Shown here in pieces: positions 2,471 through 24,830 of a stretch of DNA of 64,000 bases. The notes beneath the pieces are model-generated. The model was not told the origin of the DNA. It made no database searches and saw only the letters and a program-made list of their open reading frames with translations. This stretch comes from Gammaproteobacteria bacterium (lineage in GTDB: Bacteria; Pseudomonadota; Gammaproteobacteria; 21-64-14), in NCBI GenBank assembly GCA_027013145.1, contig JALUXX010000021.1, forward strand, positions 1-64,000, given 5' to 3'. The number at the start of each line of letters is the position of its first letter. Position 1 is the stretch's first letter. The position numbers were made by a program, and so were the translations under genes.

Positions 2471-3708
2471 GCGCACCCGGCCTCCGCCGCCGGCCAGACC
2501 TCGGCGAGCGCGGCGAGCAGGCGGTCCACGTGCGCCTCCTCGTGCAGTGCCGAGAAAGTCACGCGCAGGCGCGCGGTGCCCTGCGGGACGGTCGGCGGGC
2601 GGATCGCGCTCACCAGGATCCCGCGCGCCTCCAGCGCCGCCGACAGGGCCACGGCGCGCTCCGCGGAGCCGGTCACCAGCGGCTGGATCGGGGTCGTGGA
2701 GGCGCCGAGGGGCAGGCCGGCGGCCTGCGCCCCGGCGCGGAAACGCGCCACCAGCGCATGCAGGCGCTCGCGCCGCCACGGCTCGGCGGCCGCGATGCGC
2801 AGGGCGGCGCGGGTGGCCTCGGCTAGGGCCGGCGGCGGCGCGGTCGTATAGATATAGGTGCGTGCGCGCTGGATCAGGGTCTCGATCAGGTCCGCGTCGC
2901 CGGCGACGAAGGCGCCGAAGGTGCCGAACGCCTTGCCGAGCGTGCCCACCAGCACCGGCACCGCGTCCGCATCGAGCGCGTAGTGATCGAGCACGCCGCG
3001 ACCGCGCGGACCGACCACGCCCAGCCCGTGGGCGTCGTCGACCATCAGCCAGGCGCCGTGCGCGCGCGCCGTACGCGCGAGCGCGGGCAACGGCGCGAGG
3101 TCTCCGTCCATGCTGAACACCCCGTCGCTGACCACCAGCGCCCGGCCTTCGGACCGGCGCGCCGGCGCGCGGTCTTTGGGTGGCCGCGCCAAGGCGCGGT
3201 CTTTGAGTGGGCGCGCCAAGGCGCGGCCCAGGGCGTCGGCGTCGGCATGCCGGTAGCGCACCAGCCGCGCGCCCGACAGGCGCGCGGCGTCGAGCAGCGA
3301 GGCGTGATTGAGGCGGTCCGCGAAGACGCGGTCGCCGCGCCCGAGCAGCGCCGCGACCGCGCCGAGGTTGGCCATGTAGCCGGTGGAGAACAGCAGCGCC
3401 CGCGGGCGGCCGACGAACGCCGCCAGCTCCTCCTCGAGGGCGTGATGGGCGCGGCAGTGGCCGGTGATCAGGTGCGCGGCGCCGCTGCCCGTGCCGTAGC
3501 GGCGCGCGCCTTCGGCGAGCGCCGCGCCGAGCGCCGGATGCGCGGCCAGACCGAGATAGTCGTTGCTGCAGAAGACCAGCCGCCCGCGGCCGTCGATTAC
3601 GCCCTCCGCCCCCGGCATCCCGTCGCGCACCCGGCGCGCGCGGTAGAGCCCGGCGCGCCGGCGCGCCTCGAGGTCGGCGTGCAGGCGTGCGGCGAACGGC
3701 GCGCTCAT
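2467..3708 (-). CDS. bioF: 8-amino-7-oxononanoate synthase BioF
   Basis: This PLP enzyme condenses pimeloyl-ACP (or -CoA) with alanine. The PLP lysine is in GTLGKAFG, and the glycine-rich and Asp/His cofactor residues (VDDAHGLG) precede it, as in alpha-oxoamine synthases. The 413 aa length is about 25-30 residues more than E. coli BioF. The excess sits in one place, just before the conserved [12 protein letters not shown] strand, where the nine-residue units ALARPLKDR and ALARPPKDR repeat, followed by a diverged third. The ATG start at 3708 overlaps the bioB stop. The repeat probably forms a surface loop and should not abolish activity, since all core motifs are intact. Confidence 0.93.
3167..3220. 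repeat. 27-bp in-frame tandem duplication inside bioF
   Basis: Two adjacent 27-base units (3167-3193 and 3194-3220) differ at only two positions. Each encodes nine residues of the form ALARPxKDR on the minus strand. A third, more diverged unit precedes them in the plus-strand sequence and a partial one follows. The period is a multiple of three, so the reading frame is kept. The number of units could vary between strains by slippage. Confidence 0.85.
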
Positions 3709-10354: not shown

Positions 10355-10431
10355 GGCTACGTAGCTCAGCTGGTTAGAGCGCGGCACTCATAATGCTGAG
10401 GTCGGTGGTTCAAGTCCACCCGTAGCCACCA
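10355..10431 (+). tRNA. tRNA-Met (elongator, anticodon CAT), integration target
   Basis: Acceptor GGCTACG/CGTAGCC, a normal D-arm, anticodon stem CGGCA/TGCTG (one G-T pair) with loop CTCATAA giving anticodon CAT, T-arm with GGTTCAAGTCC, discriminator A, and encoded CCA at 10429-10431. It closely resembles E. coli elongator tRNA-Met rather than the initiator. From 10387 onward the gene is part of a 54-bp direct repeat whose second copy lies at 24777. The gene is therefore the attachment site of the element to its right and is left intact by the insertion. Confidence 0.96.
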
Positions 10432-10463: not shown

Positions 10464-11720
10464 CTACTTACCGCCGCGGATCACCCGCAGTCGGGGCCCA
10501 ACGTGACCAAAACGTGACGAACCTGCGTTTTTGGTCTTGCTTCCAAGCCGTTGGAACGCTTCCCGCGGATCGCCCGCGTACTTCTGATCCAACACCGCCA
10601 CCGCACCGCGCACCTGCTCGGGTGCCAGGTGCGCGTACTTCTCGGTCACCTGATACGAGGTGTGCCGCAGCAGATCGCGCACCTGCATCAGCGGCACCCC
10701 CGCCTGCACCAGCCACGCCGCACAGGTGTGCCGCAGGTCGTGCGGGCGGAAGTCCGCGATGCCGGCCCGCCGGCAGGCGGTCGCAAAGGAGTGCTTGACC
10801 GATGCGACGCGGGTCCCCTTCTTGGTCGAGAACACCCACGGCGAGCCCGGACAGTGCTCGTCCCGGAACCGCTTGCGCCGCGCCATCACTTCGCAGGCGG
10901 TGGCGTTGAGCGGCACCGAGACATGGCGCTTGCCCTTGTTCTTACCCGCGGGCAGATAGATCAGGCGCTGCTCCAGGTCCACACGGTCCCATTCCAACGC
11001 CAGCATCTCCTGCGACCGGCACCCCGTATGCAGTCCGAGGATGATGAAATCGGCCAGGTGGGGTGCCCGCGGCTCGCCCCGCGCCGCGGCGATCAGCCGC
11101 TCGGCCTCCTCCGCCTTCAACCACCGGATGCGGTCCTCGCCCTGCGGCGGTTTGCGCTTCTCCACGGGGTTGGGGATGTTCCAGCCCCATTGGATCCGTG
11201 CGTAGTTGATCGCGGCCGACAACAGGCTTAGCTCGCGTCGGATCGTGCTGTACGCGGTCGGTTTCTGCTTGCCTTTCTCCTTTTCCCGTTTGCCAGTGTT
11301 GCTCGACGGGGTGTTCGCGACCGTGGTCTTGCTCCGCCGCCCGGGCCTGCCCCTCGTCCGCCGCCGCCACTGGATGTAGGCCTGCACGTCCTCGGCTCGC
11401 AACTCATTCAGCACCTTGCCGCTGAATTGCTGCTTGAGCCGGCCCGTAATGCTCACATCGCGCGCGGCGCTTCGCTTCCGGTCCTGCGTCTCTTCGAGAT
11501 AGCGGACCATCAGCTCATCGAACAGGCGGGCGGGCTCCGTGCCCCAGTGCCGCTCGCGGTGTGTGTCCAGCCGCCATTTGGCGAGGATCGCTACCGCTTC
11601 CTGCCAGTCCGCCGTGCCAGTAGAGCGTCTAACGCGGCGGCCGCCTGCATCGGTGAAAGAGGCCCAGATGAACGGCGAGTCTTTCCGCCGGTAGAGCCCG
11701 TCATCGCTACGTTTGGACAT
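10464..11720 (-). CDS. Tyrosine recombinase/integrase
   Basis: A site-specific recombinase that would integrate and excise the element at tRNA-Met. Its 418 aa contain an N-terminal arm-binding region (residues 1-70), a SAM-like core-binding domain (about 75-180) and the catalytic domain. The catalytic residues are all visible: Arg in HTGCRSQEML near 233, the HDLRHT box near 327, His in LLRHTS, and the nucleophile Tyr in TEKYAHL near 362. The ATG at 11720 is chosen because the protein from there (MSKRSDDGLYRRKDS) begins like other integrases; the open frame continues upstream through the neighbouring gene. An insertion of basic residues (around 150-165) lies between the two DNA-binding halves. 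Confidence 0.93.
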   Translation of the reverse strand: MSKRSDDGLYRRKDSPFIWASFTDAGGRRVRRSTGTADWQEAVAILAKWRLDTHRERHWGTEPARLFDELMVRYLEETQDRKRSAARDVSITGRLKQQFSGKVLNELRAEDVQAYIQWRRRTRGRPGRRSKTTVANTPSSNTGKREKEKGKQKPTAYSTIRRELSLLSAAINYARIQWGWNIPNPVEKRKPPQGEDRIRWLKAEEAERLIAAARGEPRAPHLADFIILGLHTGCRSQEMLALEWDRVDLEQRLIYLPAGKNKGKRHVSVPLNATACEVMARRKRFRDEHCPGSPWVFSTKKGTRVASVKHSFATACRRAGIADFRPHDLRHTCAAWLVQAGVPLMQVRDLLRHTSYQVTEKYAHLAPEQVRGAVAVLDQKYAGDPREAFQRLGSKTKNAGSSRFGHVGPRLRVIRGGK

Positions 11721-12028
11721 GATGTGGTCTCCTGAGTCGGACACACATCCTGCCCCGCGCAGGACGTAGTATACCGCTCGATGGGTTGGGTCGGGGCCCA
11801 GGATTCGTGTGCCGCGACCCACTCGCGTACGCGCGCGGCGGGGACGCGGGTCGCCCGACCGATGCGCACGACGGGAAACGCCCCCGCCGCCACCAGGCGT
11901 TGCACCGTTCGAACGGATACGCCGCCCAATTGGCGGGCAGTCTCGGGCAGATCCCATAGGATCGGGGTTTCGGGGCTATCCGGCGCGGTCTGCTCGTGCG
12001 CGCGGGAAGATCTGTTGTCGGTGGTCAC
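11591..12028 (-). CDS. Helix-turn-helix protein (AlpA/excisionase-like)
   Basis: About 145 aa from a GTG at 12028. Residues 20-75 form a MerR/HTH_17-type winged helix: WDLPETARQLGGVSVRTVQR, then a short wing and the VRIGRATRVPAARVREWVA helix (quoted in parts). This is the classic layout of AlpA-type regulators and excisionases next to integrases. The C-terminal half overlaps the start of the integrase by 130 bases in another frame, so either translation is coupled or the true protein ends differently. The start codon is uncertain and no strong ribosome site is obvious. Its likely role is control of excision or of the integrase promoter. Confidence 0.65.
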   Translation of the reverse strand: MTTDNRSSRAHEQTAPDSPETPILWDLPETARQLGGVSVRTVQRLVAAGAFPVVRIGRATRVPAARVREWVAAHESWAPTQPIERYTTSCAGQDVCPTQETTSCPNVAMTGSTGGKTRRSSGPLSPMQAAAALDALLARRTGRKR

Positions 12029-12287: not shown

Positions 12288-13007
12288 TCATCGGTTCCCG
12301 GCCTTCCACTCGGAGAGCGGCACACTCGTGTTTGGCAGCCGCTGCACGTAGCGCAACCGGGGCGGCAGGACGAAGTCATCGAGACTGCCGTGTCGCCGGC
12401 GCCACTCCGAGCGCGCCAGGACGATCAGAGCCCCGACCTGCTCCCGGATCCCGGAGTAGCCGGGGGTCCGGTACAAAGAGCCCATCGCTCGACGGATCTC
12501 CACCGGGCCCGGTCGCCGGCATGCCTCGATGATCCATTCGCGCCATTGCCGGTAGCACGCTCGGGTCATGCGCCAGGTCCAGACGGTGCCCCCGCCCCGG
12601 GATCGGTCGCGGGTGCGGCGCAGCAGCTCATAATCATCATCGATCCGGATACGGGAGCGGCGCTCCCGCGCATCCCCCAGGTGCTCATCCATGTGCACCC
12701 GGCCCCGGCCGTCGGTTACGCACAACCACCAATGCAGATCCCGCCACTGGTGCTGGGCCAGGAAGAAGAGCCGCGCGTTCGCTAGGCCCTTGCGCTTGGC
12801 ATAGGCACGCTGCGCCTCGTTTCGGTGTACGGCATAGCGCTCGGCGAACTTGTTCGCCAAGTGCTGGGCTTTGTCACCGGAAACCGCCCCGAAGGTGTGC
12901 CAGTGATAGCCGCGCAACACGGCATCGAGAAGGCGTTGCATCAGGACCGCCTTGTGAAAATGCACGGGCGGATCAATTTGGGGTCCGAGTTGATTTCTTC
13001 GGGTCAT
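12288..13007 (-). CDS. Unrecognised element protein, possibly replication-related
   Basis: A 239 aa protein with a basic composition and many Trp, His and Arg residues. Visible features are a HWHTF motif near residue 36, an Arg/Lys-rich helix (ERYAVHRNEAQRAYAKRKG, given as a motif), a DLHWWLCVTDGRGRVH strand region near residue 90, and a C-terminal segment with paired Arg. I do not recognise the family with certainty. Its position behind the integrase and regulator, and the hairpin cluster just upstream of its start (13090-13165), suggest a replication initiator or another DNA-acting protein of the element. That is inference from context only. The ATG is at 13007. Confidence 0.55.
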   Translation of the reverse strand: MTRRNQLGPQIDPPVHFHKAVLMQRLLDAVLRGYHWHTFGAVSGDKAQHLANKFAERYAVHRNEAQRAYAKRKGLANARLFFLAQHQWRDLHWWLCVTDGRGRVHMDEHLGDARERRSRIRIDDDYELLRRTRDRSRGGGTVWTWRMTRACYRQWREWIIEACRRPGPVEIRRAMGSLYRTPGYSGIREQVGALIVLARSEWRRRHGSLDDFVLPPRLRYVQRLPNTSVPLSEWKAGNR

Positions 13008-13089
13008 GTACGGTGTAGGTACAAAATCCCGGACCGGGGATGCCCCAGGGAGTTCTTGGACAAAATTCCTCTAAGTGGCGGTTTAAATA

Positions 13090-13128
13090 GTTTCCCCAGA
13101 ATCCACCGGGGGCGGATTCAGGGGAAAC
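13090..13128. repeat. Strong stem-loop upstream of the putative replication gene
   Basis: GTTTCCCC pairs with GGGGAAAC and, after an A-A mismatch, GAATCC pairs with GGATTC, enclosing a nine-base loop. That makes 14 base pairs. It lies about 80 bases upstream of the minus-strand gene that starts at 13007. It could be part of a replication origin, an RNA leader or a terminator for transcription reaching it from the right. Confidence 0.7.
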
Positions 13129-13147
13129 TACAAGAGATTTCTATAGG

Positions 13148-13165: not shown

Positions 13166-13319
13166 AAAAGTGGCTATATAGGGGCAGGACATCGGTACAG
13201 GGAGTCGCACGACGACCCGTACCGGGGGCCGAGACCACCACTACTCTTGTGGGGGCCTCACCAGCCCCCAACCACCGTCACCGCTCCGTCAGGAGCACGG
13301 TCGGACTACCCATCCGGCC

Positions 13320-14225
13320 AGATGGAAAGTAGCCAATTCCATTGAGCATGCGCCGTAGCCGTGTGCGGGAAATTCCGCTGGCACGGCTGCAACGGGCGCT
13401 TGGGGCTGCAATGCCCCACTCGACCTAATCACCCGATTGCCGGGAGATTGGGCGACGCGGACACGGGTCCGAGGGGGAGGTACACCCGTACCGAAACCGA
13501 GGAGACCCTGGCTGCAGGGAACGGGTGAAAGTCCCGGGCAAGGGCGGCGGGAGACCGTCGAACTTGCCCCCGGCAGGTGGGCTGCACGCACGGCGGGAAA
13601 CCGCCGCGAGCCTGGGAGGAGAAATCTGGACCAGGCGGTACCGGACCGCGCAAGCGGTGCGGATCGCTGTATAGCTCAAGCCTGTACTTGCAACCGACGA
13701 GGTTGCATCTGGGTTAGTGACGTGATGCCAGTGTCCATCCCTGCAGTGGATGGATGGTTGAAGCTGGAAGCCATTCGAAGTGTAACCGAGCCGCTTTGGA
13801 ATCTCGGGCCGGTGAAAGCCCTCGTTGAGGGTGAGACCCCGTTCCGGTTCGGATGGTGAGGCGCTGGCTAGCCGATCGACTCTGCAGTCTAACGCGGGAA
13901 GGCCTACGGGCAGGGAGGTGGGTGCCTCTCGATGTAGCCTATGGCTGGGAGCGTCGTGATTAGGCTGAAAATTCGCCGGGCGATTCGACCGAAGCCCGGG
14001 GAAGAGCCAAGTCGTAGGGGCGCAGTCCCCTGCGATTCGGCAACGTGCCGAAAGCGATAAGCGCATGCGAAAGGTGACCGAGGCGGGAGCCTCAGGTGGT
14101 GTGTGAGCGCGACGAAGCTGAACGGGTGGTGCCGCAGCAGACTCGCAAGCCGGGGTGGTGCCCGGCATCTCGATCAACGGGTTCAACGTAGCGAGGACAA
14201 AGGAGGTAAAAACTGAAACGGCCAT
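13320..14225 (+). ncRNA. Large structured RNA candidate (ORF-less group II intron-like or other)
   Basis: About 900 bases contain no convincing protein gene but many consecutive hairpins with GNRA-like or short loops. Examples are GCCGTG/CACGGC enclosing GCGGG-AAAT-TCCGC (near 13358-13387), TGGGGC-TGCAA-TGCCCCA (near 13400), CCGGGC and GGGAACGGGTGAAAGTCCC (near 13515), and GAGCCG/CGGTTC ends around 13786-13853, which recall group II domain V boundaries. Purine-rich connectors and repeated GTGAAAG, GGGAAA and CGAAAG tracts are typical of large ribozymes. I cannot match a full domain V or the GUGYG 5' end. An intron lacking its reverse transcriptase is therefore only the leading idea, and the edges and strand are approximate. 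Confidence 0.45.
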
Positions 14226-14251
14226 TCAATTCGGGTCCGGCCAGCCCACGA

Positions 14252-14282
14252 GGTGCCCCACCCCACCTTCGGGTGGGGCACC
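14252..14282 (+). terminator. Perfect 11-bp hairpin at the end of the structured region
   Basis: GGTGCCCCACC pairs fully with GGTGGGGCACC around a nine-base loop. It closes the ORF-poor structured stretch. It has no U-tract, so it may be the 3' cap of the RNA or a bidirectional block rather than a standard rho-independent terminator. Confidence 0.55.
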
Positions 14283-14784
14283 GTTAGTTGCTATCCGCCG
14301 GTCATCAGGCGGATGCTTTAGAAGTGATCGTCAACGGCCCGCGACACCCACTATTGGCTTGGCCCTTTGCCACCAATTCCGGTGTCGCGCCCCGGGCTCA
14401 AGAGTGAAGTTGCTGTCGTCGCGCAGCTCCGCGTACCTGGAAGATCGCCACCGCACTTCGTCGGCCGCGGCACCCTATTGTCGCGCGCCCGGTTCGACCC
14501 CCGATCCCGCAGGCCTTAGCCGTGCCGGGCCTCCGCTGGACCCCTATTGCCTTGTTTCAACTACCTTTGCTACCACCCCCTTCACCAATATCACGATACC
14601 GGCCAAATCGCCGTCCAAAAAACTTGGCCGACAGTCCTGCAGCGTATCCTCGCGACATCCGCCTACCGATTCGATATATTTCCACGATGATACGGCGGTT
14701 GTCCCAGCCCAGTGCCCGCGGACCGAGTTATCTGGCAATCGGGCCGTCAATCATCATTAGCCGGGCGACTGTAAGGGGCGAGTT
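14283..14784. other. Intergenic stretch, no gene seen
   Basis: About 500 bases between the hairpin and the HNH gene. Short open frames exist on both strands but none has a ribosome site, family motif or convincing codon use. The sequence is less G+C-rich than the chromosome. The promoter of the HNH gene should be here, but I cannot point to a clear -35/-10 pair. Confidence 0.5.
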
Positions 14785-15585
14785 GTGCGTGAGTTTGAAC
14801 CAGTGAAGTTTTCGGAAGCATACGATCTCGCGAACGTGGTGTGGAGCTATTTCTTCGAATGGAATATGCCCGAAGAATTCGGAGCGCTATTGAACGTCCG
14901 CTGTGAGGACCTCGCTCTGCGCCTTGTGAAACCGCACAAAGATTCGGCGTTGCATCTGTTTCTACGTCGCTTTTATACCATGAACTATATCTGGGAATTC
15001 GAACGAAGTCGTGACGACATGCTTAATCTCATCATTCAGGAGTACGAGGCAGTACTTCAATATAACACTATACCCTATAGACGCTCCGAGCTCCCTCTCG
15101 AACAAGATGTGAATTATGAGCGCCTAGCTAAGCGTCGTATCTCCTACCTGCGCAAGAAGCTTCCCGTCGATCGAATTGCACAGGACACCTTTCAGCTACT
15201 ATTCCGCGATCGCGCTTTTCTCCTTCGATTCAACGACCGGCTTAGCCAGTCGGTTCGGAGCCTCGCTTCGCTACGTACCTCTGGGTTGGTCACTCGCAAT
15301 GGGACGCTTCGTCGAGCGCGCCTTCCAGCGTGGCTAAGACGGGGTATTTTTTATCGCGATAATGGACGCTGCGTGAGCTGCGGATCAGACCTTACTGGTT
15401 TGATGTTCAATGGACCCGCTGTCCATTACGATCACATTGTTCCACTGGCCGCGTTCGGTTCCAATGATCCAACGAATTTCCAACTCCTATGCAGCCGTTG
15501 CAATTTGAGAAAAAGCACACATCCCCGCACGTGGGAACGCTACCCAGTATTCTGGGGTGCGACACCCAGCAAAAGAGCCAGCTAA
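14785..15585 (+). CDS. HNH endonuclease-domain protein
   Basis: A 266 aa protein with a C-terminal HNH nuclease: CVSC near residue 195, then HYDHIVPL near 217 (the catalytic DH pair), then NFQLLCSRCN near 233 and a following Lys. The two CxxC pairs bind structural zinc and the His/Asn set forms the beta-beta-alpha-metal active site, all intact. The first 190 residues are mostly helical, rich in Tyr, Phe and Arg, and belong to no family I recognise. The GTG at 14785 has AAGGGG upstream. G+C is clearly lower than in the core genome. It precedes a HEPN gene by 63 bases and the type I operon beyond, so a defence function is likely but unproven. Confidence 0.85.
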   Translation: MREFEPVKFSEAYDLANVVWSYFFEWNMPEEFGALLNVRCEDLALRLVKPHKDSALHLFLRRFYTMNYIWEFERSRDDMLNLIIQEYEAVLQYNTIPYRRSELPLEQDVNYERLAKRRISYLRKKLPVDRIAQDTFQLLFRDRAFLLRFNDRLSQSVRSLASLRTSGLVTRNGTLRRARLPAWLRRGIFYRDNGRCVSCGSDLTGLMFNGPAVHYDHIVPLAAFGSNDPTNFQLLCSRCNLRKSTHPRTWERYPVFWGATPSKRAS

Positions 15586-15648
15586 CAAGGCTGTGAACCC
15601 GTGCGCCTGCGCGTTACGGCCGCTGCATTAGATTTCGAGGGTATCAAT

Positions 15649-16266
15649 ATGCCATCCCAAGCACTCAAGGATTTCAAAAATCGTACCCAAGAAGTTCGCC
15701 AATTGTTGGATGCCCATGGCGCGCTCACAAGGCTGCGCCGTGCAGAAGGCGCTCTCCAATCGGGTGGCCAGTCACTTCGAAACGTCGGAAATGTCGTGAT
15801 ACACCTGGTCTCAACACCAGGCCGCGGCCGGCCTGCTGAGGTTCACGCCCTAAACAGCGCAGGTATTGCGTTATTGTCTGCGCACCTACAAGGCTTCATC
15901 GTTGACCTGTTCAAAGAGGTGACACTTGCTTGCTTAGACGGTAAGGTCCGTGACGTAGGAGCGCTACAGTCCGCGGCAAACACTCGCGGCAATCCCAACT
16001 GGTCCAACATCACCAAGCTGTTCCGAGCGGCGGGATTTCCAGACATTCTTTCTAACATTTCTTGGCAGCGAATGAGTAATGAGAAACTGCGCCAGAAGCT
16101 AGAGTCGTTCAACAAGCTACGAAATGAAATCGTTCATGGCACGAGCGCGCGGGTAAGAAAGGCAGTCGTGTCCAATTATCTGAAGGTGCTAACTACTTTC
16201 GCGGAACATTTGGACAATACGTTGCGCAGAGAAGTGCGCAAGGTGACGCGGCGCTTTCCGTGGTAA
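15649..16266 (+). CDS. HEPN-domain protein (RiboL-PSP-HEPN-like)
   Basis: A 205 aa helical protein with the HEPN signature R-N-E-I-V-H near residues 157-162, the R-x4-6-H motif that forms the active site of HEPN ribonucleases. It also has conserved upstream helices (GIALLSAHLQGFIVDLF near residue 75) of the kind seen in RiboL-PSP-HEPN proteins. I choose the ATG at 15649, which has CGAGGG at good spacing; a GTG 48 bases earlier is weaker. It is the second gene after the HNH nuclease, in the same orientation and with similarly lower G+C. HEPN proteins are commonly RNA-cleaving toxins or defence effectors. Here the partner would be the HNH protein or the restriction system. Confidence 0.72.
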   Translation: MPSQALKDFKNRTQEVRQLLDAHGALTRLRRAEGALQSGGQSLRNVGNVVIHLVSTPGRGRPAEVHALNSAGIALLSAHLQGFIVDLFKEVTLACLDGKVRDVGALQSAANTRGNPNWSNITKLFRAAGFPDILSNISWQRMSNEKLRQKLESFNKLRNEIVHGTSARVRKAVVSNYLKVLTTFAEHLDNTLRREVRKVTRRFPW

Positions 16267-16425
16267 GAACTACAACCACTCGCTCAACGGGACGCTCACC
16301 AGCGGCGCGGGTTCGCAGCGGTTGCTTCGAGCATTGACACGCCTGAGCGCACTACCAGTAGCATCGTGCGGGTGGCGATCGATTCGGGCGCAAGCAGGCA
16401 AGCGAATCAAAACGGGAACCGACGC

Positions 16426-17979
16426 ATGATAACCGGAGACATCAGAAGCCAAATCGACCGCATCTGGGACGCCTTCTGGTCCGGCGGCATCTCGAACCCG
16501 CTGGAGGTGATCGAGCAGATCACCTACCTGCTCTTCCTGCGCCGGCTGGACGACCTGCACACGCTGGAGGAGAACAAGGCCAACCGGCTCAAGCAGCCCA
16601 TGGCGCGGCGCATCTTCCCGGAAGGCAAGGACGCGAAGGGCCGCCCATACGAGGACTTCCGCTGGTCGCGCCTTAAGCACTTGGCACCAGCGGAGATGTT
16701 CAAGGTGGTCGGCGAGCACGTCTTCCCGTTCCTGCGCGAGGGGCTCGCCCGCCAGCTCGGCAACGGCGACTCCACCTACGCGCACCACATGAAGGACGCC
16801 CGGTTCACCATCCCGACGCCGGCGTTGCTGGCCAAGGTGGTGGACATGCTCGATCACGTCCCCATGGAGGACCGCGACACCAAGGGCGACATCTACGAGT
16901 ACATGCTCGGCAAGATCGCAACCGCCGGCCAAAACGGCCAGTTCCGCACGCCGCGCCACATCATCCGGTTGATGGTCGAGCTGACCGTGCCGCAGCCCAA
17001 GGACGTGATCTGCGACCCGGCCTGCGGCACAGCGGGCTTTTTGGTCGCGGCGGGCGAGTACCTGCGCGAGCGTCATTCGGACCTGCTGCACGACCGCAAG
17101 CTGCGCGAGCACTTTCACCACCGCATGTTCCACGGCTTCGACTTCGACAACACCATGCTGCGTATCGGCAGCATGAACATGCTCCTGCACGGGGTGGAGA
17201 ACCCGGACATCCGCTACCGCGATTCGCTCGCGCAGGACCACGCCGGCGAGGAGGAGAAATACACCCTGGTGCTGGCCAATCCGCCCTTCGCCGGCAGCCT
17301 GGACTACGAGAACACCGCCAAGGACCTGCTCCAGATCGTCAAGACCAAGAAGACCGAGCTGCTCTTCCTCGCACTCTTCCTGCGGCTCCTGAAGCCCGGA
17401 GGGCGCGCCGCGGTGATCGTGCCCGACGGCGTGCTGTTCGGCTCCAGCAAGGCCCATAAGGAGCTGCGCCGCATCCTGGTGGAGGACCAGAAACTCGAGG
17501 CCGTGGTGTCGCTGCCCGGCGGCGTGTTCAAGCCCTATGCGGGGGTCTCCACCGCGATCCTCGTCTTCACCAAGACCAACTCCGGCGGCACCGACACCGT
17601 GTGGTTCTACGACGTCGAGGCCGACGGCTGGAGCCTCGACGACAAACGGACGCCGCTCCTCGCCGAGGACAAGCTCGGGCCGGTGCCGAAGACGCCGCTC
17701 ACGAAAGACGAACATGCGAAGAACAACCTGCCCGACGTGCTCGCCCGCTGGGCCGAGCGCGCAGGCAGCGAGCGCGAGCGACCGCGCACCGCGCAGAGCT
17801 TCTGTGTGCCCAAGGCCGACATCGCCGCCCAGGGCTACGACCTCTCGCTCAACCGCTACAAGGAGATTGTGCACGAGGCGGTCGATTACCCGCCGCCCAA
17901 GGAGATCCTCGCGGAACTCTGGAAGCTGGAGGAGGAGATTCAGCGGGGGATGAAGGAGTTGGATGGGATGCTGCGATGA
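16426..17979 (+). CDS. hsdM: Type I restriction-modification system, DNA methyltransferase subunit HsdM
   Basis: HsdM is the N6-adenine methyltransferase of a type I system, acting with HsdS. An N-terminal helical HsdM_N domain (ISNPLEVIEQITYLLFLRRL near residue 24) is followed by the methyltransferase core: SAM motif I DPACGTAGFL at about 197-206 and catalytic motif IV NPPF near 285. The 517 aa length is normal. The ATG at 16426 directly precedes the conserved ITGDIRSQIDRIWDAFW start. Its stop overlaps the hsdS start (ATGA). It heads the operon hsdM-hsdS-ATPase-hsdR, and G+C rises back to chromosomal level here, unlike the HNH/HEPN genes just before. Confidence 0.95.
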   Translation: MITGDIRSQIDRIWDAFWSGGISNPLEVIEQITYLLFLRRLDDLHTLEENKANRLKQPMARRIFPEGKDAKGRPYEDFRWSRLKHLAPAEMFKVVGEHVFPFLREGLARQLGNGDSTYAHHMKDARFTIPTPALLAKVVDMLDHVPMEDRDTKGDIYEYMLGKIATAGQNGQFRTPRHIIRLMVELTVPQPKDVICDPACGTAGFLVAAGEYLRERHSDLLHDRKLREHFHHRMFHGFDFDNTMLRIGSMNMLLHGVENPDIRYRDSLAQDHAGEEEKYTLVLANPPFAGSLDYENTAKDLLQIVKTKKTELLFLALFLRLLKPGGRAAVIVPDGVLFGSSKAHKELRRILVEDQKLEAVVSLPGGVFKPYAGVSTAILVFTKTNSGGTDTVWFYDVEADGWSLDDKRTPLLAEDKLGPVPKTPLTKDEHAKNNLPDVLARWAERAGSERERPRTAQSFCVPKADIAAQGYDLSLNRYKEIVHEAVDYPPPKEILAELWKLEEEIQRGMKELDGMLR

Positions 17980-19187
17980 CTGTCGCGTTGACAACGGTAG
18001 AGCTGGGCGACGTTGCAGTATTTGTTCGGGGAATCACCTTCAAGCCAGACGACGTGGTTCCAGTTGGCACCCCTGGCTGCGCGGCTTGCATGCGGACAAA
18101 GAACGTGCAGGCGGAACTCGACCTATCCGATGTATGGGGCGTTCCGGAGCGACTTGTTAAACGTGACGACCAATACCTAGTTCCGGGCGACATACTCGTG
18201 TCCAGCGCAAACAGTTGGAACTTAGTCGGCAAGTGCTGCTGGGTACCGAGGCTACCCTGGCGTTCGACGTTCGGAGGGTTCATTTCCGTGCTGCGCCCAA
18301 ATCCCGCCAAGGTCCATCCGCGATATCTGTTCCGCTGGTTCGCATCGGACTGCACCCAAGCCACCGTGCGGAACTTCGGTCAGCAGACAACCAATATCTC
18401 GAATCTGAACGTTGATCGCTGCTTGAAGCTGAAGCTTCGCCTCCCACCTTTCCCCGAGCAGCGGCGGATTGCGGCGATCCTGGACAAGGCGGACGCGCTG
18501 CGGGCCAAGCGCCGCGCCGCGCTCCAGAAGCTCGACGAGCTGACCCAATCCATCTTCCTCGACATGTTCGGCGACCCCGCCACGAACCCGAAGGGGTGGC
18601 CGGTGAAGGCCTTGAAGAACTGCGTCGCGAGGGTTCAGATAGGGCCGTTCGGGTCTCTACTGCATCAGGAAGACTACGTTAGTGGCGGGGTTCCCCTCGT
18701 GAATCCAAAGCACATTCAGAGTGGCGTCATTGAAATTGACGCAGACGAAACCGTTACGCCGGAGAAGTTTGAGGAGCTTGGCGTCTATCGTCTGGCGCCG
18801 GGCGATGTCGTAATGGGACGTCGCGGCGAAATGGGCCGTTGCGCGATTGTTGACGCCGCGAGTTGCCCGTTGCTGTGTGGCACCGGTTCGCTGTTCCTCC
18901 GTCCGGACAACACGCAAACGACAAGCATTTTCTTGCGCGCGATGCTTTCTAGTGAAGCGATCAAGTCGAGACTGGATCGACTGTCATTGGGCCAGACGCT
19001 ACCCAATCTGAACTCTCGCATCGTTGAGGGTCTTGAGATTCCGTTGCCGCCGGTGACTGTCCAACGCGAATTCGCCGATCACGTTATGGCAAGCAAGGCG
19101 CTTGGAGCTATTCAGCAGAGTTCGGAGACTTGGCTCGACGCGCTCTTCGCCTCCCTCCAGCACCGCGCCTTCCGGGGAGAGCTGTAG
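17976..19187 (+). CDS. hsdS: Type I restriction specificity subunit HsdS
   Basis: HsdS recognises the bipartite DNA target. Two target-recognition domains are visible, about residues 1-150 and 205-365. Each is followed by a conserved helical spacer: the first with PPFPEQRRIAAILDKADALRAKRR near residue 155 and the second with LPPVTVQREFADHV near 365. The TRDs are much more A+T-rich than the flanking spacers and hsdM, the usual mark of TRD exchange. The 403 aa length is typical. The ATG at 17976 overlaps the hsdM stop. The target sequence cannot be deduced from the protein. Confidence 0.93.
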   Translation: MTVALTTVELGDVAVFVRGITFKPDDVVPVGTPGCAACMRTKNVQAELDLSDVWGVPERLVKRDDQYLVPGDILVSSANSWNLVGKCCWVPRLPWRSTFGGFISVLRPNPAKVHPRYLFRWFASDCTQATVRNFGQQTTNISNLNVDRCLKLKLRLPPFPEQRRIAAILDKADALRAKRRAALQKLDELTQSIFLDMFGDPATNPKGWPVKALKNCVARVQIGPFGSLLHQEDYVSGGVPLVNPKHIQSGVIEIDADETVTPEKFEELGVYRLAPGDVVMGRRGEMGRCAIVDAASCPLLCGTGSLFLRPDNTQTTSIFLRAMLSSEAIKSRLDRLSLGQTLPNLNSRIVEGLEIPLPPVTVQREFADHVMASKALGAIQQSSETWLDALFASLQHRAFRGEL

Positions 19188-19189
19188 CC

Positions 19190-20407
19190 ATGCGCGGCGC
19201 TCCCTTCGGCGTCTGGCCGCGGACGTGGCGACGCGTCCACCGATCGGCCCGCCGGCTCCGCCCCGCGCTCGCCACCACTCCGGCCGAAGCCTCGGCCGTG
19301 GCGCTGCTGGGGCCCCGCCAGGTGGGCAAGACCACGCTCGCGCTGGAGGTGGCCCGGACGCGGCCGTCGGTCTATCTCGACCTGGAATCCGAGGCCGACC
19401 GCGCTAAGCTCGCCGAGCCCGAGCTGTATCTGGCGCAGCACGCGGACAAGCTCGTCATCCTCGACGAGATCCAGCGCACGCCGGGACTGTTCCGCCCGCT
19501 GCGCGGGCTGATCGACGCCGGCCGCCGGCGCCGGCAGGGCAAGGGCCGCTTCCTGGTGCTGGGCCCGGCGTCCATCGATCTGCTCAAGCAGTCGAGCGAG
19601 TCGCTCGCCGGCCGCATCCGCTACCTGGAGCTGGGCCCCTTCGATGCCGGCGAGGTGGGTCGGGAGCGGCTGGACGCCCTGTGGCTGCGCGGCGGTTTTC
19701 CCGAGAGCCTGCTCGCCGATTCGGACGCGGCGAGCCTGCGCTGGCGGCTGGATTTCATCCGCACCTATCTGGAGCGCGACATCCCGCAGCTCGGCCCGCG
19801 CATCCCGGCGGAGACGCTGCGCCGGCTGTGGACCATGCTCGCGCATCAGCAGGGCGGCCTGCTCAATGCCGCGGCGCTCGCCCGCTCGCTGGCCGTGGAC
19901 GGAAAGACGGTGGCTTCGTATCTCGACCTGCTGGCGGACCTGCTGCTGGTGCGCCGCCTCACACCGTGGCACGGTAATGTGAAGAAGCGGCTGGTGAAAT
20001 CACCCAAGGTGTATGTGCGCGACAGCGGGCTGGTGCACGCGCTGCTGGGGATCGGCGATCAGGAGGCGCTGCTCGCGCACCCCATCGCCGGCGCAAGCTG
20101 GGAAGGGATGGCGATCGAATCCCTGATTGCCGCCGCCCCGGAAGGGACGGAGGCCCATTTTTTCCGCAGCGCGGCCGGGGCGGAGATCGACCTTTTGCTC
20201 ACGCGCCCCGGTGAGCGCAGACCCTGGGCGATCGAGATCAAGCGGGGGCTCGCGCCGAAGATCGAGCGCGGCTTCCATCTGGCCTGCGAGACGGTCGGGC
20301 CGGCGTACCGGCGCGTGGTGTACTCCGGCACGGAACGTTTCCCGCTCGCCGAGGGTGTCGAAGCCGTTTCGCTGCCCGAGCTGTGCGAGGAGATCGGCGC
20401 GCGATGA
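19190..20407 (+). CDS. AAA ATPase with DUF4143 domain, embedded in the restriction operon
   Basis: A 405 aa ATPase of the AAA_14/DUF4143 type. Walker A GPRQVGKTT lies near residue 43 and Walker B KLVILDEIQ near residue 88. A winged-helix region is in the middle (LLNAAALARSLAVDGKTVASY) and the C-terminal DUF4143 portion has the GASWEGMAIESL and ADFFRSAAGAEIDLLL-like motif (here EAHFFRSAAGAEIDLLL), a restriction-endonuclease-like fold in some members. The ATG at 19190 is two bases after the hsdS stop, and its own stop overlaps the hsdR start, so it is co-translated with the type I genes. Such ATPases are not standard type I subunits. It may assist or guard the system, or be an independent passenger. 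Confidence 0.88.
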   Translation: MRGAPFGVWPRTWRRVHRSARRLRPALATTPAEASAVALLGPRQVGKTTLALEVARTRPSVYLDLESEADRAKLAEPELYLAQHADKLVILDEIQRTPGLFRPLRGLIDAGRRRRQGKGRFLVLGPASIDLLKQSSESLAGRIRYLELGPFDAGEVGRERLDALWLRGGFPESLLADSDAASLRWRLDFIRTYLERDIPQLGPRIPAETLRRLWTMLAHQQGGLLNAAALARSLAVDGKTVASYLDLLADLLLVRRLTPWHGNVKKRLVKSPKVYVRDSGLVHALLGIGDQEALLAHPIAGASWEGMAIESLIAAAPEGTEAHFFRSAAGAEIDLLLTRPGERRPWAIEIKRGLAPKIERGFHLACETVGPAYRRVVYSGTERFPLAEGVEAVSLPELCEEIGAR

Positions 20408-23400
20408 GCCAGTTCGCCTTCCTCCAGCGCGAATGGCCGGCCGTCTTCGAGGCGGCCGCGAAGGCGGAAGCCGCGGTGCGCGCCGACCCGCGCACGGCCT
20501 GCTTCTACGCGCGGCGGACGTTGGAGCTGGCGGTGCATTGGGCCTACAAACACGACGCGGCGCTTAGGCTCCCCTACCAGGACAACCTCTCTGCCTTGAT
20601 TCACGAGCCGAGCTTCAAACGGACGGCGGGCGAGGCGGTGTTCAACAAGGCCCGGGTTATCAACACGCTGGGCAACCGCGCGGTGCACAGCCATCGCGCC
20701 GTGCCGGAATCGGACGCCTTGGCGGCGGTGCGCGAGTTGTTCCACGTGGCCTACTGGTTCGCGCGCACTTACGGGCGGGTGGGACGGCCGGCGCCGGGTC
20801 TGCGCTTCGATCCGGCCGCGCTGCCGAGGCCCGCGGCGGTGGCTCAACAGACTGCAGAGCAACTGCGCACGCTGGAGGAAGGGCTTCGGGAACGCGACGA
20901 GAAGCTCGCGGCCGTGCTCGCGGACAAGGACGCGCTCGACGAGGAGCTGAAGCGCCTGCGCGCCGAGGTGGCCAAGGCCAAGCAGGCCGCCGCCGCACAG
21001 CCGGACACGCACGACTATTCCGAAGCCGAGACCCGCGACACCTTCATCGACCTGCTGCTGAAGGAGGCCGGCTGGCCGCTCGACCAGACCCGCGACCGGG
21101 AGTTCGAGGTCAGCGGGATGCCCAATGAGCAGGGCAAGGGGTTCGTGGACTACGTCCTGTGGGGCGACGACGGCAAGCCGCTCGGACTGGTGGAAGCGAA
21201 GCGCACGCGGCGCGATGCGCGTGTGGGGCAGCAGCAGGCCAAGCTCTATGCCGATTGCCTGGAGCGGCAGTTCGGCCGGCGGCCGGTGATCTTCTACTCG
21301 AACGGCTACGAGCATTGGATCTGGGACGACGCGCGCTATCCGCCGCGCCAAGTGCAGGGTTTCTACAAGAAGGCGGAGCTGGAGCTGTTGATTCAGCGCC
21401 GCACCACGCGGCGGCCGTTGGCCGAGGAGGCAATCAACGCCGAGATCGCCGAGCGTCATTATCAGACCCGCGCCATCCGCCGCATCGCGGAGGCCTTCGA
21501 GCGCGACCACGACCGCAAGGCGCTGCTCGTCATGGCCACCGGTGCCGGCAAGACGCGCACGGTGATCGCGCTCGCCGACCTGCTGATGCGCTGCAACTGG
21601 GTGAAGCGCGTGCTGTTTCTGGCCGACCGCGTGGCGCTGGTCAATCAGGCGGTGAACGCCTTCAAGCGTCACCTACCCGACGCCTCGCCGGTGAACCTGG
21701 TGACCGAGAAGGAGGCGGAAGGGCGCGTCTTCGTCTCGACCTACCCGACGATGATGGGTCTCATCGACGAATCCCGCGATGGGCAGCGGCGCTTCGGGGT
21801 CGGGCACTTCGACCTCGTGGTCATCGACGAGGCGCATCGTTCGGTGTTTCAGAAGTACCGCGCCATCTTCGACTACTTCGACTCGCTGCTGGTCGGGCTC
21901 ACCGCCACACCCAAGGACGAGGTGGACCGCAACACCTACAGCCTGTTCGATCTGGAAAACGGCGTGCCCACCGATGCCTATGGGCTCGATGAGGCGGTAC
22001 GCGACGGCTTCCTCGTGCCGCCGAAGGCCGTTTCGGTGCCGCTCAAGTTTCAGCGCGAAGGCATCCGCTACGACGACCTGTCCGAGGAAGAAAAGGACCA
22101 GTGGGACGCCCTGGAGTGGGATCAGGACGGGCAGGCACCCGACCGCGTCGAGGCCGAAGCGGTCAACAAGTGGCTGTTCAACAAGGACACGGTGGACAAG
22201 GTGCTGGAACACCTGATGACGCGCGGCCTCAAGGTCGCGGGTGGAGACCGGCTGGGGAAAACCATTATCTTCGCCAAGAACCAGGCCCACGCCGAGTTCA
22301 TTGCCGAGCGCTTCAACGCCAACTACCCGCACTACAAAGGCGCGTTCGCACGGGTCATCACTTTCAAGACCGAATACGCCCAGAGCCTGATCGCCGACTT
22401 CTCGAATAAGGAGAAGGACCCGCACGTTGCGATCTCGGTGGATATGCTCGACACCGGGATCGACATCCCTGAGGTGGTCAACCTGGTCTTCTTCAAGCTG
22501 GTGCGCTCGAAGACCAAGTTCTGGCAGATGCTCGGCCGAGGCACCCGCCTGTGTCCGGACCTGTTCGGACCGGGGCAGGACAAGACGTGTTTCTTCGTGT
22601 TCGACTACTGCGGAAATCTGGAGTATTTCAGCCAGGAAATACCGGCGACCGAAGGTGCGATCGCGGATTCGCTCGGCAAGCGGCTGTTCAAAGCCCGGCT
22701 GGCGTTGATCGCGGAGTTGGACAAGAAGCTCGTCGACGCCGAACACGATGAGACGCGCGAAGCACTGGCGCCGCCCCATGGGCACCCGACCACGGATGCT
22801 GAAGTGCGCGCCCAGATCGCGGCGATGTTGCAAGGGGAAGTGGCTGCCATGAATCTCGACAACTTTGTGGTAAGGCCACATCGCCGCCTTGTCGAGAAAT
22901 TCTCTAAGCCGGAAACGTGGACCTCGCTCTCTCCTGAGGCCCTGGCCGACCTGTTGAACGAGGTCGCCGGACTGCCGGCGGAAGTCGGCCCGGAGAAGGA
23001 GGAGGCGAAACGTTTCGATCTTCTGATCCTGAAACTGCAACTGGCTCTGCTGCACGCGGAAGGAGGTTATGTCCGACTCCGGGAACGCGTGGTGCAGATC
23101 GCCGGGCTTCTGGAGGAGAAGTCGTCCATTCCGATGGTGCAGGCGCAGATGAAACTGATCCAGGATGTCCAGACCGAGGCGTGGTGGCAGGACGTCACCG
23201 TTGCGATGCTGGAGCACATGCGCCGGCGGCTGCGCGATCTGGTTTATCTGCTGGACAAGCGCCAGCGGAAAACGGTGTACACGGATTTCGAGGATGTGAT
23301 GGGGCCGGAGTCCGAGGTTGACCTGCCGGGCGTCGGGACGGGAACCGATTTCGAGAAGTTTCGCGCTAAGGCGCGAGCCTTTCTGCGGCAGCACCTGGAC

Positions 23401-23820
23401 CACGTCGCCATCCACAAGCTGCGTACCAACAAGCCGCTCACGCGGAACGATCTGGCCGCGCTGGAGCGCATGCTCAGCGAGAGCGGCCTGGGCGACCCGG
23501 ATAAACTCCGGCGCATTGCCGAGGCATCGCAGGGCCTGGGTCTCTTCGTGCGGTCGCTGGTCGGGATGGATCGCGGCGCAGCGAAAGAGGCGATGGCGGG
23601 CTTCCTGGAGGGCAGGACTCTTTCTGCAAATCAGATTGAGTTCATCAATCTTATCGTGGACCACCTAACCGAACACGGAGTCATCGAACCCGGCAGGCTG
23701 TACGAATCTCCCTTTACAGATCTTACGCCAACGGGGCCGGAAGCACTCTTCACGCAATCGGAACTCGACGAGCTGATCCGCTCCTTGGAAACCGTAAAAT
23801 CCACGGCGGTGGCGGCGTGA
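20404..23820 (+). CDS. hsdR: Type I restriction endonuclease/translocase subunit HsdR
   Basis: HsdR translocates and cuts unmodified DNA. Order of domains in 1138 aa: an N-terminal DUF4145-like helical domain (residues 1-125), a coiled coil (about 155-200), and a PD-(D/E)xK nuclease with Asp near 248 (FVDYVLWGDD) and GLVEAKRT near 264. A superfamily 2 helicase follows, with Walker A MATGAGKTRT near 377, DEAH (VIDEAHRS) near 472, GLTATP, and motif VI QMLGRGTR near 712. An EcoEI-type C-terminal domain ends the protein. All catalytic motifs are intact. The ATG at 20404 overlaps the stop of the DUF4143 ATPase. Confidence 0.95.
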   Translation: MSQFAFLQREWPAVFEAAAKAEAAVRADPRTACFYARRTLELAVHWAYKHDAALRLPYQDNLSALIHEPSFKRTAGEAVFNKARVINTLGNRAVHSHRAVPESDALAAVRELFHVAYWFARTYGRVGRPAPGLRFDPAALPRPAAVAQQTAEQLRTLEEGLRERDEKLAAVLADKDALDEELKRLRAEVAKAKQAAAAQPDTHDYSEAETRDTFIDLLLKEAGWPLDQTRDREFEVSGMPNEQGKGFVDYVLWGDDGKPLGLVEAKRTRRDARVGQQQAKLYADCLERQFGRRPVIFYSNGYEHWIWDDARYPPRQVQGFYKKAELELLIQRRTTRRPLAEEAINAEIAERHYQTRAIRRIAEAFERDHDRKALLVMATGAGKTRTVIALADLLMRCNWVKRVLFLADRVALVNQAVNAFKRHLPDASPVNLVTEKEAEGRVFVSTYPTMMGLIDESRDGQRRFGVGHFDLVVIDEAHRSVFQKYRAIFDYFDSLLVGLTATPKDEVDRNTYSLFDLENGVPTDAYGLDEAVRDGFLVPPKAVSVPLKFQREGIRYDDLSEEEKDQWDALEWDQDGQAPDRVEAEAVNKWLFNKDTVDKVLEHLMTRGLKVAGGDRLGKTIIFAKNQAHAEFIAERFNANYPHYKGAFARVITFKTEYAQSLIADFSNKEKDPHVAISVDMLDTGIDIPEVVNLVFFKLVRSKTKFWQMLGRGTRLCPDLFGPGQDKTCFFVFDYCGNLEYFSQEIPATEGAIADSLGKRLFKARLALIAELDKKLVDAEHDETREALAPPHGHPTTDAEVRAQIAAMLQGEVAAMNLDNFVVRPHRRLVEKFSKPETWTSLSPEALADLLNEVAGLPAEVGPEKEEAKRFDLLILKLQLALLHAEGGYVRLRERVVQIAGLLEEKSSIPMVQAQMKLIQDVQTEAWWQDVTVAMLEHMRRRLRDLVYLLDKRQRKTVYTDFEDVMGPESEVDLPGVGTGTDFEKFRAKARAFLRQHLDHVAIHKLRTNKPLTRNDLAALERMLSESGLGDPDKLRRIAEASQGLGLFVRSLVGMDRGAAKEAMAGFLEGRTLSANQIEFINLIVDHLTEHGVIEPGRLYESPFTDLTPTGPEALFTQSELDELIRSLETVKSTAVAA

Positions 23821-24776: not shown

Positions 24777-24830
24777 CTCATAATGCTGAGGTCGGTGGTT
24801 CAAGTCCACCCGTAGCCACCAACCTATCCA
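24777..24830. repeat. attR: second copy of the 54-bp tRNA-Met repeat
   Basis: It is identical to 10387-10440 and reproduces the tRNA-Met gene from the anticodon loop to nine bases past the CCA. The bases upstream do not form the 5' half of a tRNA, so this is not a functional tRNA. It marks the distal end of the integrated element. Similarity continues weakly for 20 bases into the right flank. Confidence 0.92.

What the first reader, a model, noticed from the sequence alone, without database searches (positions are those of the whole stretch)
13320..14282. About 0.95 kb of hairpin-rich, protein-free sequence: large structured RNA candidate
Many nested hairpins with purine loops, no credible gene on either strand, and a perfect 11-bp hairpin at the end. 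It shows a GAGCCG/CGGTTC frame and GTGAAAG/CGAAAG tracts like those in group II ribozymes. It has no reverse transcriptase and no clear domain V, so it may be an ORF-less intron relic or a new large RNA class of a mobile element. It is also the only big non-coding piece of the element, lying between its core genes and its cargo.
Basis: partly seen in the sequence, partly recalled or inferred. Interest (0 to 1): 0.7.

Follow-up and report, generated by a model that had tools for sequence, protein, structure and literature searches.

The report
Circularly permuted group II ribozyme
The stretch encodes an intact, rearranged self-splicing RNA of a rare class first described in 2021 (its catalytic end comes first, so it should cut out a tiny RNA circle), and comparing about 80 relatives showed that most of them carry an apparently unreported second target sequence just upstream, which gives a testable lead on what these RNAs do.

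Summary
Window ~13285-14283 is a circularly permuted (CP) group II ribozyme (Roth et al. 2021, PMC8637638), with domain order D5-D6-linker-D1-D2-D3-D4. Domain V exists, but at the 5' end (13357-13388). D6 with its bulged branch adenosine, both splice sites, an EBS1-IBS1 pair and the class's companion gene acpG (12288-13007, divergent) are all present. Predicted excised circle: 13430-13449, 20 nt.

Covariation is strong: 98.8% of D5/D6 pair cells are paired in 45 sequences, and 16 of 22 pairs have compensatory changes. Rfam 15 has no model that detects it. A 68% identical second copy lies elsewhere in the genome, also with acpG. No match to two group II reverse-transcriptase/maturase families (RVT_1, GIIM) was found in the 99.88% complete genome.

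New here, as far as the main text of the 2021 paper goes: an upstream site, median 241 nt before D5, is an exact 8-nt complement of GG+EBS1 in 58 of 74 loci (permuted mean 18.5, maximum 29; control regions 0-2). All eight EBS1 types have it; it also appears in Polaromonas and Thermus. The window has 7 of 8 bases, with EBS1 matched exactly. I infer that it is a second substrate of the ribozyme.

The parts
13357..13388 (+). Domain 5 (catalytic hairpin): AGC triad 13357-13359, five pairs, UG bulge 13379-13380, 6-nt loop 13369-13374
   Evidence: Model R1 match 114 bits, E 1.7e-25 (the window is a member of the model's alignment); pair counts on A2: 11 pairs, 98.4% paired, 7 with compensatory changes
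13394..13426 (+). Domain 6; bulged branch-point adenosine at 13423
   Evidence: Pair counts on A2: 11 pairs, 99.2% paired, 9 with compensatory changes
13430..13449 (+). Linker between the inverted splice sites = predicted 20-nt RNA circle (3' splice site 13429/13430, 5' splice site 13449/13450)
   Evidence: Splice-site rule AAU^ / ^GGGCG from PMC8637638; the same rule applied here to P. naphthalenivorans pPNAP05 gives 32 nt, the length stated in the paper
13444..13449 (+). IBS1 (GAGATT), pairs with EBS1
   Evidence: Across 79 loci Watson-Crick pairing with EBS1 is 0.84 against permuted mean 0.72, max 0.77 in 2000 permutations
13450..13896 (+). Domain 1, beginning with the 5' splice-site motif GGGCGAC; base helix 13456-13459 / 13893-13896
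   Evidence: RNAalifold on 24 relatives; column conservation in 72 relatives
13800..13805 (+). EBS1 (AATCTC) in a D1 terminal loop, preceded by conserved GG (delta position 13799)
   Evidence: Best-pairing block of the alignment for IBS1; statistics
13901..13945 (+). Domain 2; loop UGG 13919-13921 can pair with the P2 loop
   Evidence: RNAalifold helix and loop sequences of 24 relatives
13952..14059 (+). Domain 3 region
   Evidence: RNAalifold helix 13952-13957 / 14054-14059, 90% paired, 5 of 6 pairs with compensatory changes
13321..13343 (+). P2 hairpin, specific to the CP class; loop CCA 13333-13335
   Evidence: All 8 pairs with compensatory changes in 24 relatives; loops GCCA/UGGC or ACCA/UGGU covary with D2 in most
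13346..13353 (+). 5' strand of the long-range helix (with 14061-14068) that closes D5-D6-D1-D2-D3
   Evidence: 95% paired, 6 of 8 pairs with compensatory changes
14061..14068 (+). 3' strand of the same closing helix
14252..14282 (+). Terminal 12-bp hairpin, a candidate D4 or transcript end (no U tract follows)
   Evidence: a similar hairpin stands at the same place in copy 2 (sequence)
13134..13141 (+). uIBS: upstream site GAGATT|TC, exact complement of EBS1 plus one of the two following C's
   Evidence: Exact 8-nt version in 58 of 74 loci against permuted mean 18.5 (max 29), control regions 0-2; out-of-sample cases
13088..13130 (.). Hairpin ending 3 nt before uIBS
   Evidence: DNA-fold z = -5.7; 30 of 63 loci have a fold with z < -2 in the 60 nt before uIBS
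12288..13007 (-). acpG homologue (239 aa), divergent from the ribozyme
   Evidence: hhalign of 50 relatives against T. thermophilus AcpG (TTHC007): probability 97.5, E 5.6e-12; orientation counts
10464..11957 (-). Tyrosine recombinase (integrase) of the carrying element
   Evidence: PF00589, E 3.5e-33
10387..10431 (+). Left attachment repeat, 3' part of tRNA-Met (tRNA 10355-10431)
   Evidence: 45-bp identity with 24777-24821
24777..24821 (+). Right attachment repeat: the element spans about 14.4 kb

Best explanation
The region encodes an intact circularly permuted group II ribozyme, carried with its companion gene acpG on a 14.4-kb tRNA-Met-integrated element. Shown by sequence: D5 and D6 precede D1-D4; the splice sites are inverted around a 20-nt linker; EBS1 pairs with IBS1; the structure is under strong covarying selection. 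Inferred from the five tested members of the class: the branch adenosine 13423 attacks the 5' splice site (13449/13450), the freed IBS1 3' end then attacks the 3' splice site (13429/13430), releasing a 20-nt RNA circle and leaving a branched RNA in which D5-D6 is tied to D1-D4. Inferred further here: once its own linker has left, EBS1 is free to bind uIBS (13134-13141), which has the sequence of a joined-exon junction (IBS1|C). There the free 3' end of D6 can reverse splice, or cut by spliced-exon reopening. In cis on RNA a full reverse splicing would join the leader to D1 and release a larger circle that holds D5-D6; on DNA it would nick or mark the acpG-ribozyme intergenic region. Since the genome shows no group II reverse transcriptase or maturase, AcpG is the likeliest helper protein. 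The function I think most likely is self-regulation or maintenance of the carrying element, not retromobility. The confidence given is for membership and the back-splicing chemistry; I give the uIBS-as-substrate step about 0.5.
For: D5/D6 covariation: 98.8% of cells paired, 16 of 22 pairs with compensatory changes, score 0.587 against 0.183 shuffled and 0.09-0.12 slid. Model R1 also finds pPNAP05 of P. naphthalenivorans, whose CP RNA is active in vitro (E 2.7e-23), and T. thermophilus pTT8 (E 9.2e-7). The splice rule reproduces the 32-nt circle reported for P. naphthalenivorans. EBS1-IBS1 covaries. acpG beside both copies of the genome, homologous to TTHC007. uIBS: 58 of 74 loci, permuted max 29, controls 0-2; all 8 EBS1 types covered, including 4 of 4 types seen once; out of sample in Polaromonas, Thermus, Sulfuriferula and L094. 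Within this genome the two copies carry private triplets: window AATCTC/GAGATT/GAGATT, copy 2 AGTCCC/GGGACT/GGGACT. No RVT_1 or GIIM match in the genome.
Against: No transcript or splicing data for this organism. The paper found no processed CP RNA in P. naphthalenivorans cells. The window's uIBS is followed by TC, not CC, and its P2-D2 pseudoknot keeps only 3 of the usual 4 pairs. uIBS is absent from a minority of loci (Azotobacter group, Halomonas, Thiothrix and some others). An AT-rich hexamer before uIBS resembles a -10 box in part of the set, so uIBS could lie at the transcript start. That uIBS is a substrate is inference.
Confidence: 0.92

Rival explanations
1. An ORF-less canonical group II intron or its decayed relic, with domains in the usual order and a missing domain V.
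For: Group II-like motifs, no reverse transcriptase nearby.
Against: D5-D6 lie upstream of D1 in the window and in all relatives gathered. No Rfam group II match downstream or anywhere in the region. 161 of 167 conserved columns are kept, so it is not decayed.
Confidence: 0.02
2. Another known large bacterial RNA (GOLLD, ROOL, OLE, HEARO) or a wholly new one.
For: Size and complexity; an HNH gene follows at 14785, as with HEARO.
Against: No match in 4227 Rfam families even at E up to 10 apart from chance hits. Full set of CP group II landmarks found.
Confidence: 0.02
3. The upstream site uIBS is not a ribozyme substrate but a regulatory sequence: the ribozyme or its branched product binds it through EBS1 without chemistry (for example an RNA-DNA hybrid at the acpG/ribozyme promoter, or a leader pairing that holds the ribozyme inactive).
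For: uIBS lies in the divergent intergenic region, median 112 nt from the AcpG N-terminus. An AT-rich, partly -10-like hexamer precedes it, and hairpins or inverted repeats stand before it in about half the loci.
Against: Pairing to EBS1 plus the delta position is exactly what group II splicing chemistry uses, and the following CC matches a joined-exon junction. No sigma-70 promoter match in the window.
Confidence: 0.35
4. uIBS is a DNA homing site: stem-loop plus IBS1 is the target form of bacterial class C group II introns (from general knowledge), so the CP RNA could be the mark of a past or continuing DNA insertion pathway using an enzyme supplied in trans.
For: Hairpin directly before uIBS in the window (z -5.7) and z < -2 in 30 of 63 loci.
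Against: No RVT_1 or GIIM match in this genome. The site is intact, not interrupted by the RNA gene. Half the loci have no strong hairpin.
Confidence: 0.12

Closest known systems
CP (circularly permuted) group II ribozymes, Roth et al. 2021 (PMC8637638)
   Same: Domain order, D5 triad and bulge, D6 branch adenosine, inverted splice sites (AAU^ and ^GGGCG), EBS1-IBS1, P2 hairpin with D2-loop pairing, no internal ORF, nearby divergent acpG, plasmid or mobile-element location
   Different: Circle of 20 nt is near the short end of the published 15-86 nt range; P2-D2 pairing is 3 bp; a second EBS1-complementary site upstream, not mentioned in the paper's main text (supplements not readable here)
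Canonical group II introns (IIB/IIC and others)
   Same: Same set of domains and presumed chemistry
   Different: Domain order is permuted, no intron-encoded protein, no exons restored by splicing
AcpG (TTHC007 family)
   Same: 12288-13007 is a distant homologue
   Different: In the loci gathered here it is divergent in about 65 of 67 and on the ribozyme's strand in none, a stricter arrangement than the mixed orientations described in the paper

Membership tests
CP group II ribozyme | D5 and D6 located 5' of D1-D4 | tested here: met
   D5 13357-13388 and D6 13394-13426 precede D1 at 13450; model R1 and pair counts, consensus fold
CP group II ribozyme | D5 with AGC triad, five pairs, UN bulge | tested here: met
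   Sequence at 13357-13388; pair table
CP group II ribozyme | D6 with bulged branch-point adenosine | tested here: met
   A13423 unpaired between paired C13424 and G13422; columns 76-81 of A2
CP group II ribozyme | Inverted splice sites (NU^ and ^GGGCG) around a short linker | tested here: met
   AAT^ 13429/13430 and ^GGGCG 13449/13450; the same rule returns the published 32 nt for P. naphthalenivorans. Conservation of these bases among relatives is partly imposed by the search pattern
CP group II ribozyme | EBS1-IBS1 pairing between D1 and the linker | tested here: met
   GAGATT with AATCTC, 6 of 6; covariation
CP group II ribozyme | P2 stem whose loop pairs with the D2 loop | tested here: met
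   CCA 13333-13335 with UGG 13919-13921, 3 pairs rather than the usual 4; loops of relatives
CP group II ribozyme | No intron-encoded protein inside or beside the RNA | tested here: met
   No RT among the element genes scanned; no RVT_1 or GIIM in the genome
CP group II ribozyme | Association with acpG (frequent, not obligatory) | tested here: met
CP group II ribozyme | Self-processing to a branched RNA and a small circle | not testable with these tools
   Needs in vitro transcription
Canonical group II intron | D5-D6 at the 3' end, splice sites at the outer ends | tested here: not met
GOLLD, ROOL, OLE, HEARO | Match to the Rfam covariance model | tested here: not met

The most novel reading that the evidence does not exclude
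CP group II ribozymes have a second substrate of their own: a site a few hundred bases upstream, kept as an exact complement of EBS1 plus its delta neighbours in different phyla. The circle-releasing reaction would then be only the first half of the natural pathway. The branched ribozyme, perhaps with AcpG, would go on to cut or reverse splice at this site in its own leader or in its promoter DNA, splitting off a D5-D6 circle or controlling acpG and the carrying element.
Probability: 0.5. Interest if true: 0.88.

Novelty: new member of a known kind. Interest (0 to 1): 0.72.

Why it matters
[quoted passage not shown] A conserved, co-evolving second target upstream gives that question a concrete handle: mutate EBS1 and uIBS singly and together. 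It may also bear on why no processed RNA was seen in cells: if the natural product is made at uIBS, primers placed around the linker alone would not show all of it. The ribozyme's catalytic parts are intact in a genome with no detected group II reverse transcriptase or maturase, which argues for a role other than retromobility, and AcpG, a confidently modelled protein with no match among solved structures, is the obvious partner to test. Rfam 15 does not detect this RNA, so annotation pipelines will miss it and may call spurious genes on it, as probably happened in one Halomonas plasmid record.

Tried and rejected
Rfam scans at gathering and at E up to 10 gave only chance matches over the region. 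The first EBS1 guess (window +173 after the 5' splice site) was dropped after a column-by-column test put EBS1 at +350. A first full-length alignment with wide flanks was useless and was replaced by anchored ones. The apparent deviations at 13332 and 13925 turned out to be alignment shifts in the P2 and D2 loops. A search for an EBS2-like partner of the bases before uIBS gave no convincing signal. Viral contigs and the phage collection hold no match. AcpG has no Pfam, NCBIfam or PADLOC family at a meaningful score, no related solved structure by sequence and no fold match in PDB or viral models. A clean empty site could not be shown: in the one other genome of the genus homology ends at the tRNA 3' end and the downstream side differs.

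Full report
WHAT IS THERE. The stretch 13320-14282 is strongly structured (z = -6.6) and does not encode a protein. No Rfam family explains it. The key was a hairpin near the 5' end that reads as group II domain 5 (AGCCGTGTGCGGGAAATTCCGCTGGCACGGCT, 13357-13388), followed by a D6-like hairpin and then by D1-like sequence. [quoted passage not shown] 2021 (PMC8637638).

RELATIVES. A second copy lies in the same genome (68% identical, G000:C56:133002-133892 -). More came from plasmids (E. coli, Azotobacter, Halomonas, Acetobacteraceae, Thiothrix, Deinococcus; Paraburkholderia, Pandoraea and others through their acpG genes) and from 66 genome loci found with a DNA pattern for D6 end plus 5' splice site. 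Because of that pattern, conservation of those bases is partly imposed; the rest of the molecule was not selected for. In a sample of 273 genomes of the class only 4 match the model, the window's own included, so the RNA is scattered, as expected of something carried by mobile elements.

TESTS OF MEMBERSHIP. On 45 relatives the D5 and D6 helices are paired in 98.8% of cells, with compensatory changes at 16 of 22 pairs; the covariation score is 0.587 against 0.183 for shuffles and about 0.1 for slid partners. A covariance model from these (R1) scores the window at 114 bits (a sequence it was built from) and also finds, outside its own alignment, P. naphthalenivorans pPNAP05 (E 2.7e-23; that RNA is active in vitro in the paper) and T. 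thermophilus pTT8 (E 9.2e-7). Reading the splice sites by the paper's rule gives 32 nt for P. naphthalenivorans, the length the paper states, and 20 nt for the window. EBS1 was located by asking which alignment columns pair best with the linker end: one block stood out (window 13800-13805), with Watson-Crick pairing 0.84 against at most 0.77 in 2000 permutations. A consensus fold of 24 relatives gives the remaining domains, the class-specific P2 hairpin and a long-range helix 13346-13353/14061-14068 that closes the molecule. The P2 and D2 loops covary as GCCA/UGGC or ACCA/UGGU in most relatives; the window keeps three of these pairs. Of 167 columns that are at least 90% conserved in 72 relatives the window keeps 161. 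It is intact.

COMPANION GENE. 12288-13007 (-) is a homologue of AcpG: hhalign of a 50-sequence profile against TTHC007 gives E 5.6e-12. The genome has two copies, each beside one ribozyme copy. Of 81 loci, 67 show an AcpG gene in the DNA held; in none of them is it on the ribozyme's strand, and in about 65 it is divergent (my count, after allowing for circular plasmids and over-long open frames; two, L026 and L050, are convergent). Many of the remaining loci are cut off on that side. The paper describes mixed orientations. AlphaFold2 models AcpG with high confidence (pLDDT 94.7, pTM 0.89), yet no solved or viral structure resembles it.

CARRIER. A 45-bp repeat of the tRNA-Met 3' end at 10387-10431 and 24777-24821 bounds an element of about 14.4 kb with an integrase, acpG, the ribozyme, an HNH gene, a HEPN gene and a type I restriction-modification system. 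The genome (99.88% complete) has no match to the reverse-transcriptase family RVT_1 or to the group II maturase family GIIM, so retromobility by a group II protein of this cell is unlikely.

THE UPSTREAM SITE. While comparing flanks I noticed that the region upstream of the ribozyme repeats the IBS1 sequence. Tested over all loci, the exact complement of the eight bases GG+EBS1 occurs 140-520 nt upstream of D5 in 58 of 74 loci. Exchanging EBS1 sequences among loci gives 18.5 on average and 29 at most in 1000 permutations; equal-sized control regions give 0 of 64, 1 of 64, 2 of 74 and 0 of 74. All eight EBS1 types seen have their matching site, including four types seen once. Outside the discovery set the site is present in Polaromonas pPNAP05, Thermus pTT8, Sulfuriferula and L094, and was not found in Gluconacetobacter or in the insertion-split Pandoraea copy within the distance searched. 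The two copies in this genome have private sets: window EBS1 AATCTC, IBS1 GAGATT, upstream GAGATT(TC); copy 2 AGTCCC, GGGACT, GGGACT(CC). The site lies between acpG and the ribozyme (median 112 nt from the AcpG N-terminus and 241 nt from D5), often directly after a hairpin (z < -2 in 30 of 63, against 5-8 of about 62 in the two regions further upstream but 18-22 of 63 in the two regions downstream). The main text of the 2021 paper does not mention it; its supplements could not be read here.

HOW IT MOST LIKELY WORKS. Shown: architecture, covariation, splice-site and EBS1 pairing, association with acpG, the upstream site. Inferred from tested members of the class: back-splicing with release of a 20-nt circle and formation of a branched RNA. 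Inferred here: the site IBS1|CC has the sequence of joined exons, to which EBS1 and the delta base bind, so the branched product can reverse splice there or reopen it. In cis this would join the leader to D1 and free a circle with D5-D6; in DNA it would strike the acpG-ribozyme intergenic region. A purely regulatory pairing is the main rival. The paper found the RNA expressed but no linker-excised form in cells, so what the ribozyme does in vivo is still open.

LIMITS. No expression or splicing data; relatives are mostly Proteobacteria because of the search pattern; permutations ignore phylogeny, although several unrelated EBS1 types and two phyla are covered; E-values of R1 are rough; the window's own upstream site has 7 of 8 bases; the function of AcpG is unknown.

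Noticed in passing
window 13134-13141 and L003-L088 upstream regions: A conserved upstream site that covaries with EBS1 of the ribozyme (uIBS), treated in the report as the main new observation.
   Followed up: yes
window 12288-13007; A1, A3: AcpG is predicted with very high confidence (pLDDT 94.7) but has no structural match in PDB or viral models: possibly a new fold. Divergent from the ribozyme in about 65 of 67 loci and never on its strand.
   Followed up: partly
window 13088-13130; 60 nt before uIBS in other loci: Hairpin or inverted repeat directly before the upstream site, in several loci of the form TGTGNTTC...GAANCACA (e.g. L038, L041, L047), which could be an operator or a stem-loop target.
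   Followed up: partly
L010 (Pandoraea oxalativorans pPO70-4) 1367-3544: The CP ribozyme is split between D5 and D6 by an IS256-family insertion, a natural knockout.
   Followed up: no
L005 (E. coli pS19_141-h, 3.06 kb) and L016 (Halomonas pHaKG2_3, 4.2 kb): Tiny plasmids made of little more than RepL and the CP ribozyme (plus acpG in Halomonas): minimal systems for testing a role in plasmid maintenance.
   Followed up: no
L016 1006-1830: A hypothetical protein annotated antisense to the ribozyme is probably spurious, like the 266-aa antisense ORF at window 13425-14225.
   Followed up: partly
window 16366-23820: Type I restriction-modification genes with an AAA/DUF4143 gene (19130-20407) between hsdS and hsdR, after HNH (14785-15585) and HEPN (15601-16266) genes of low G+C: defence cargo.
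   Followed up: partly
L003 3085-4371: The second ribozyme/acpG copy of the genome stands near an ISL3-family transposase and no tRNA gene was found in the 11 kb around it.
   Followed up: no
window 14202-14215 and copy 2: A GGAGGT tract near the 3' end of the RNA, followed in copy 2 by ATG at start-codon spacing but not in the window.
   Followed up: no
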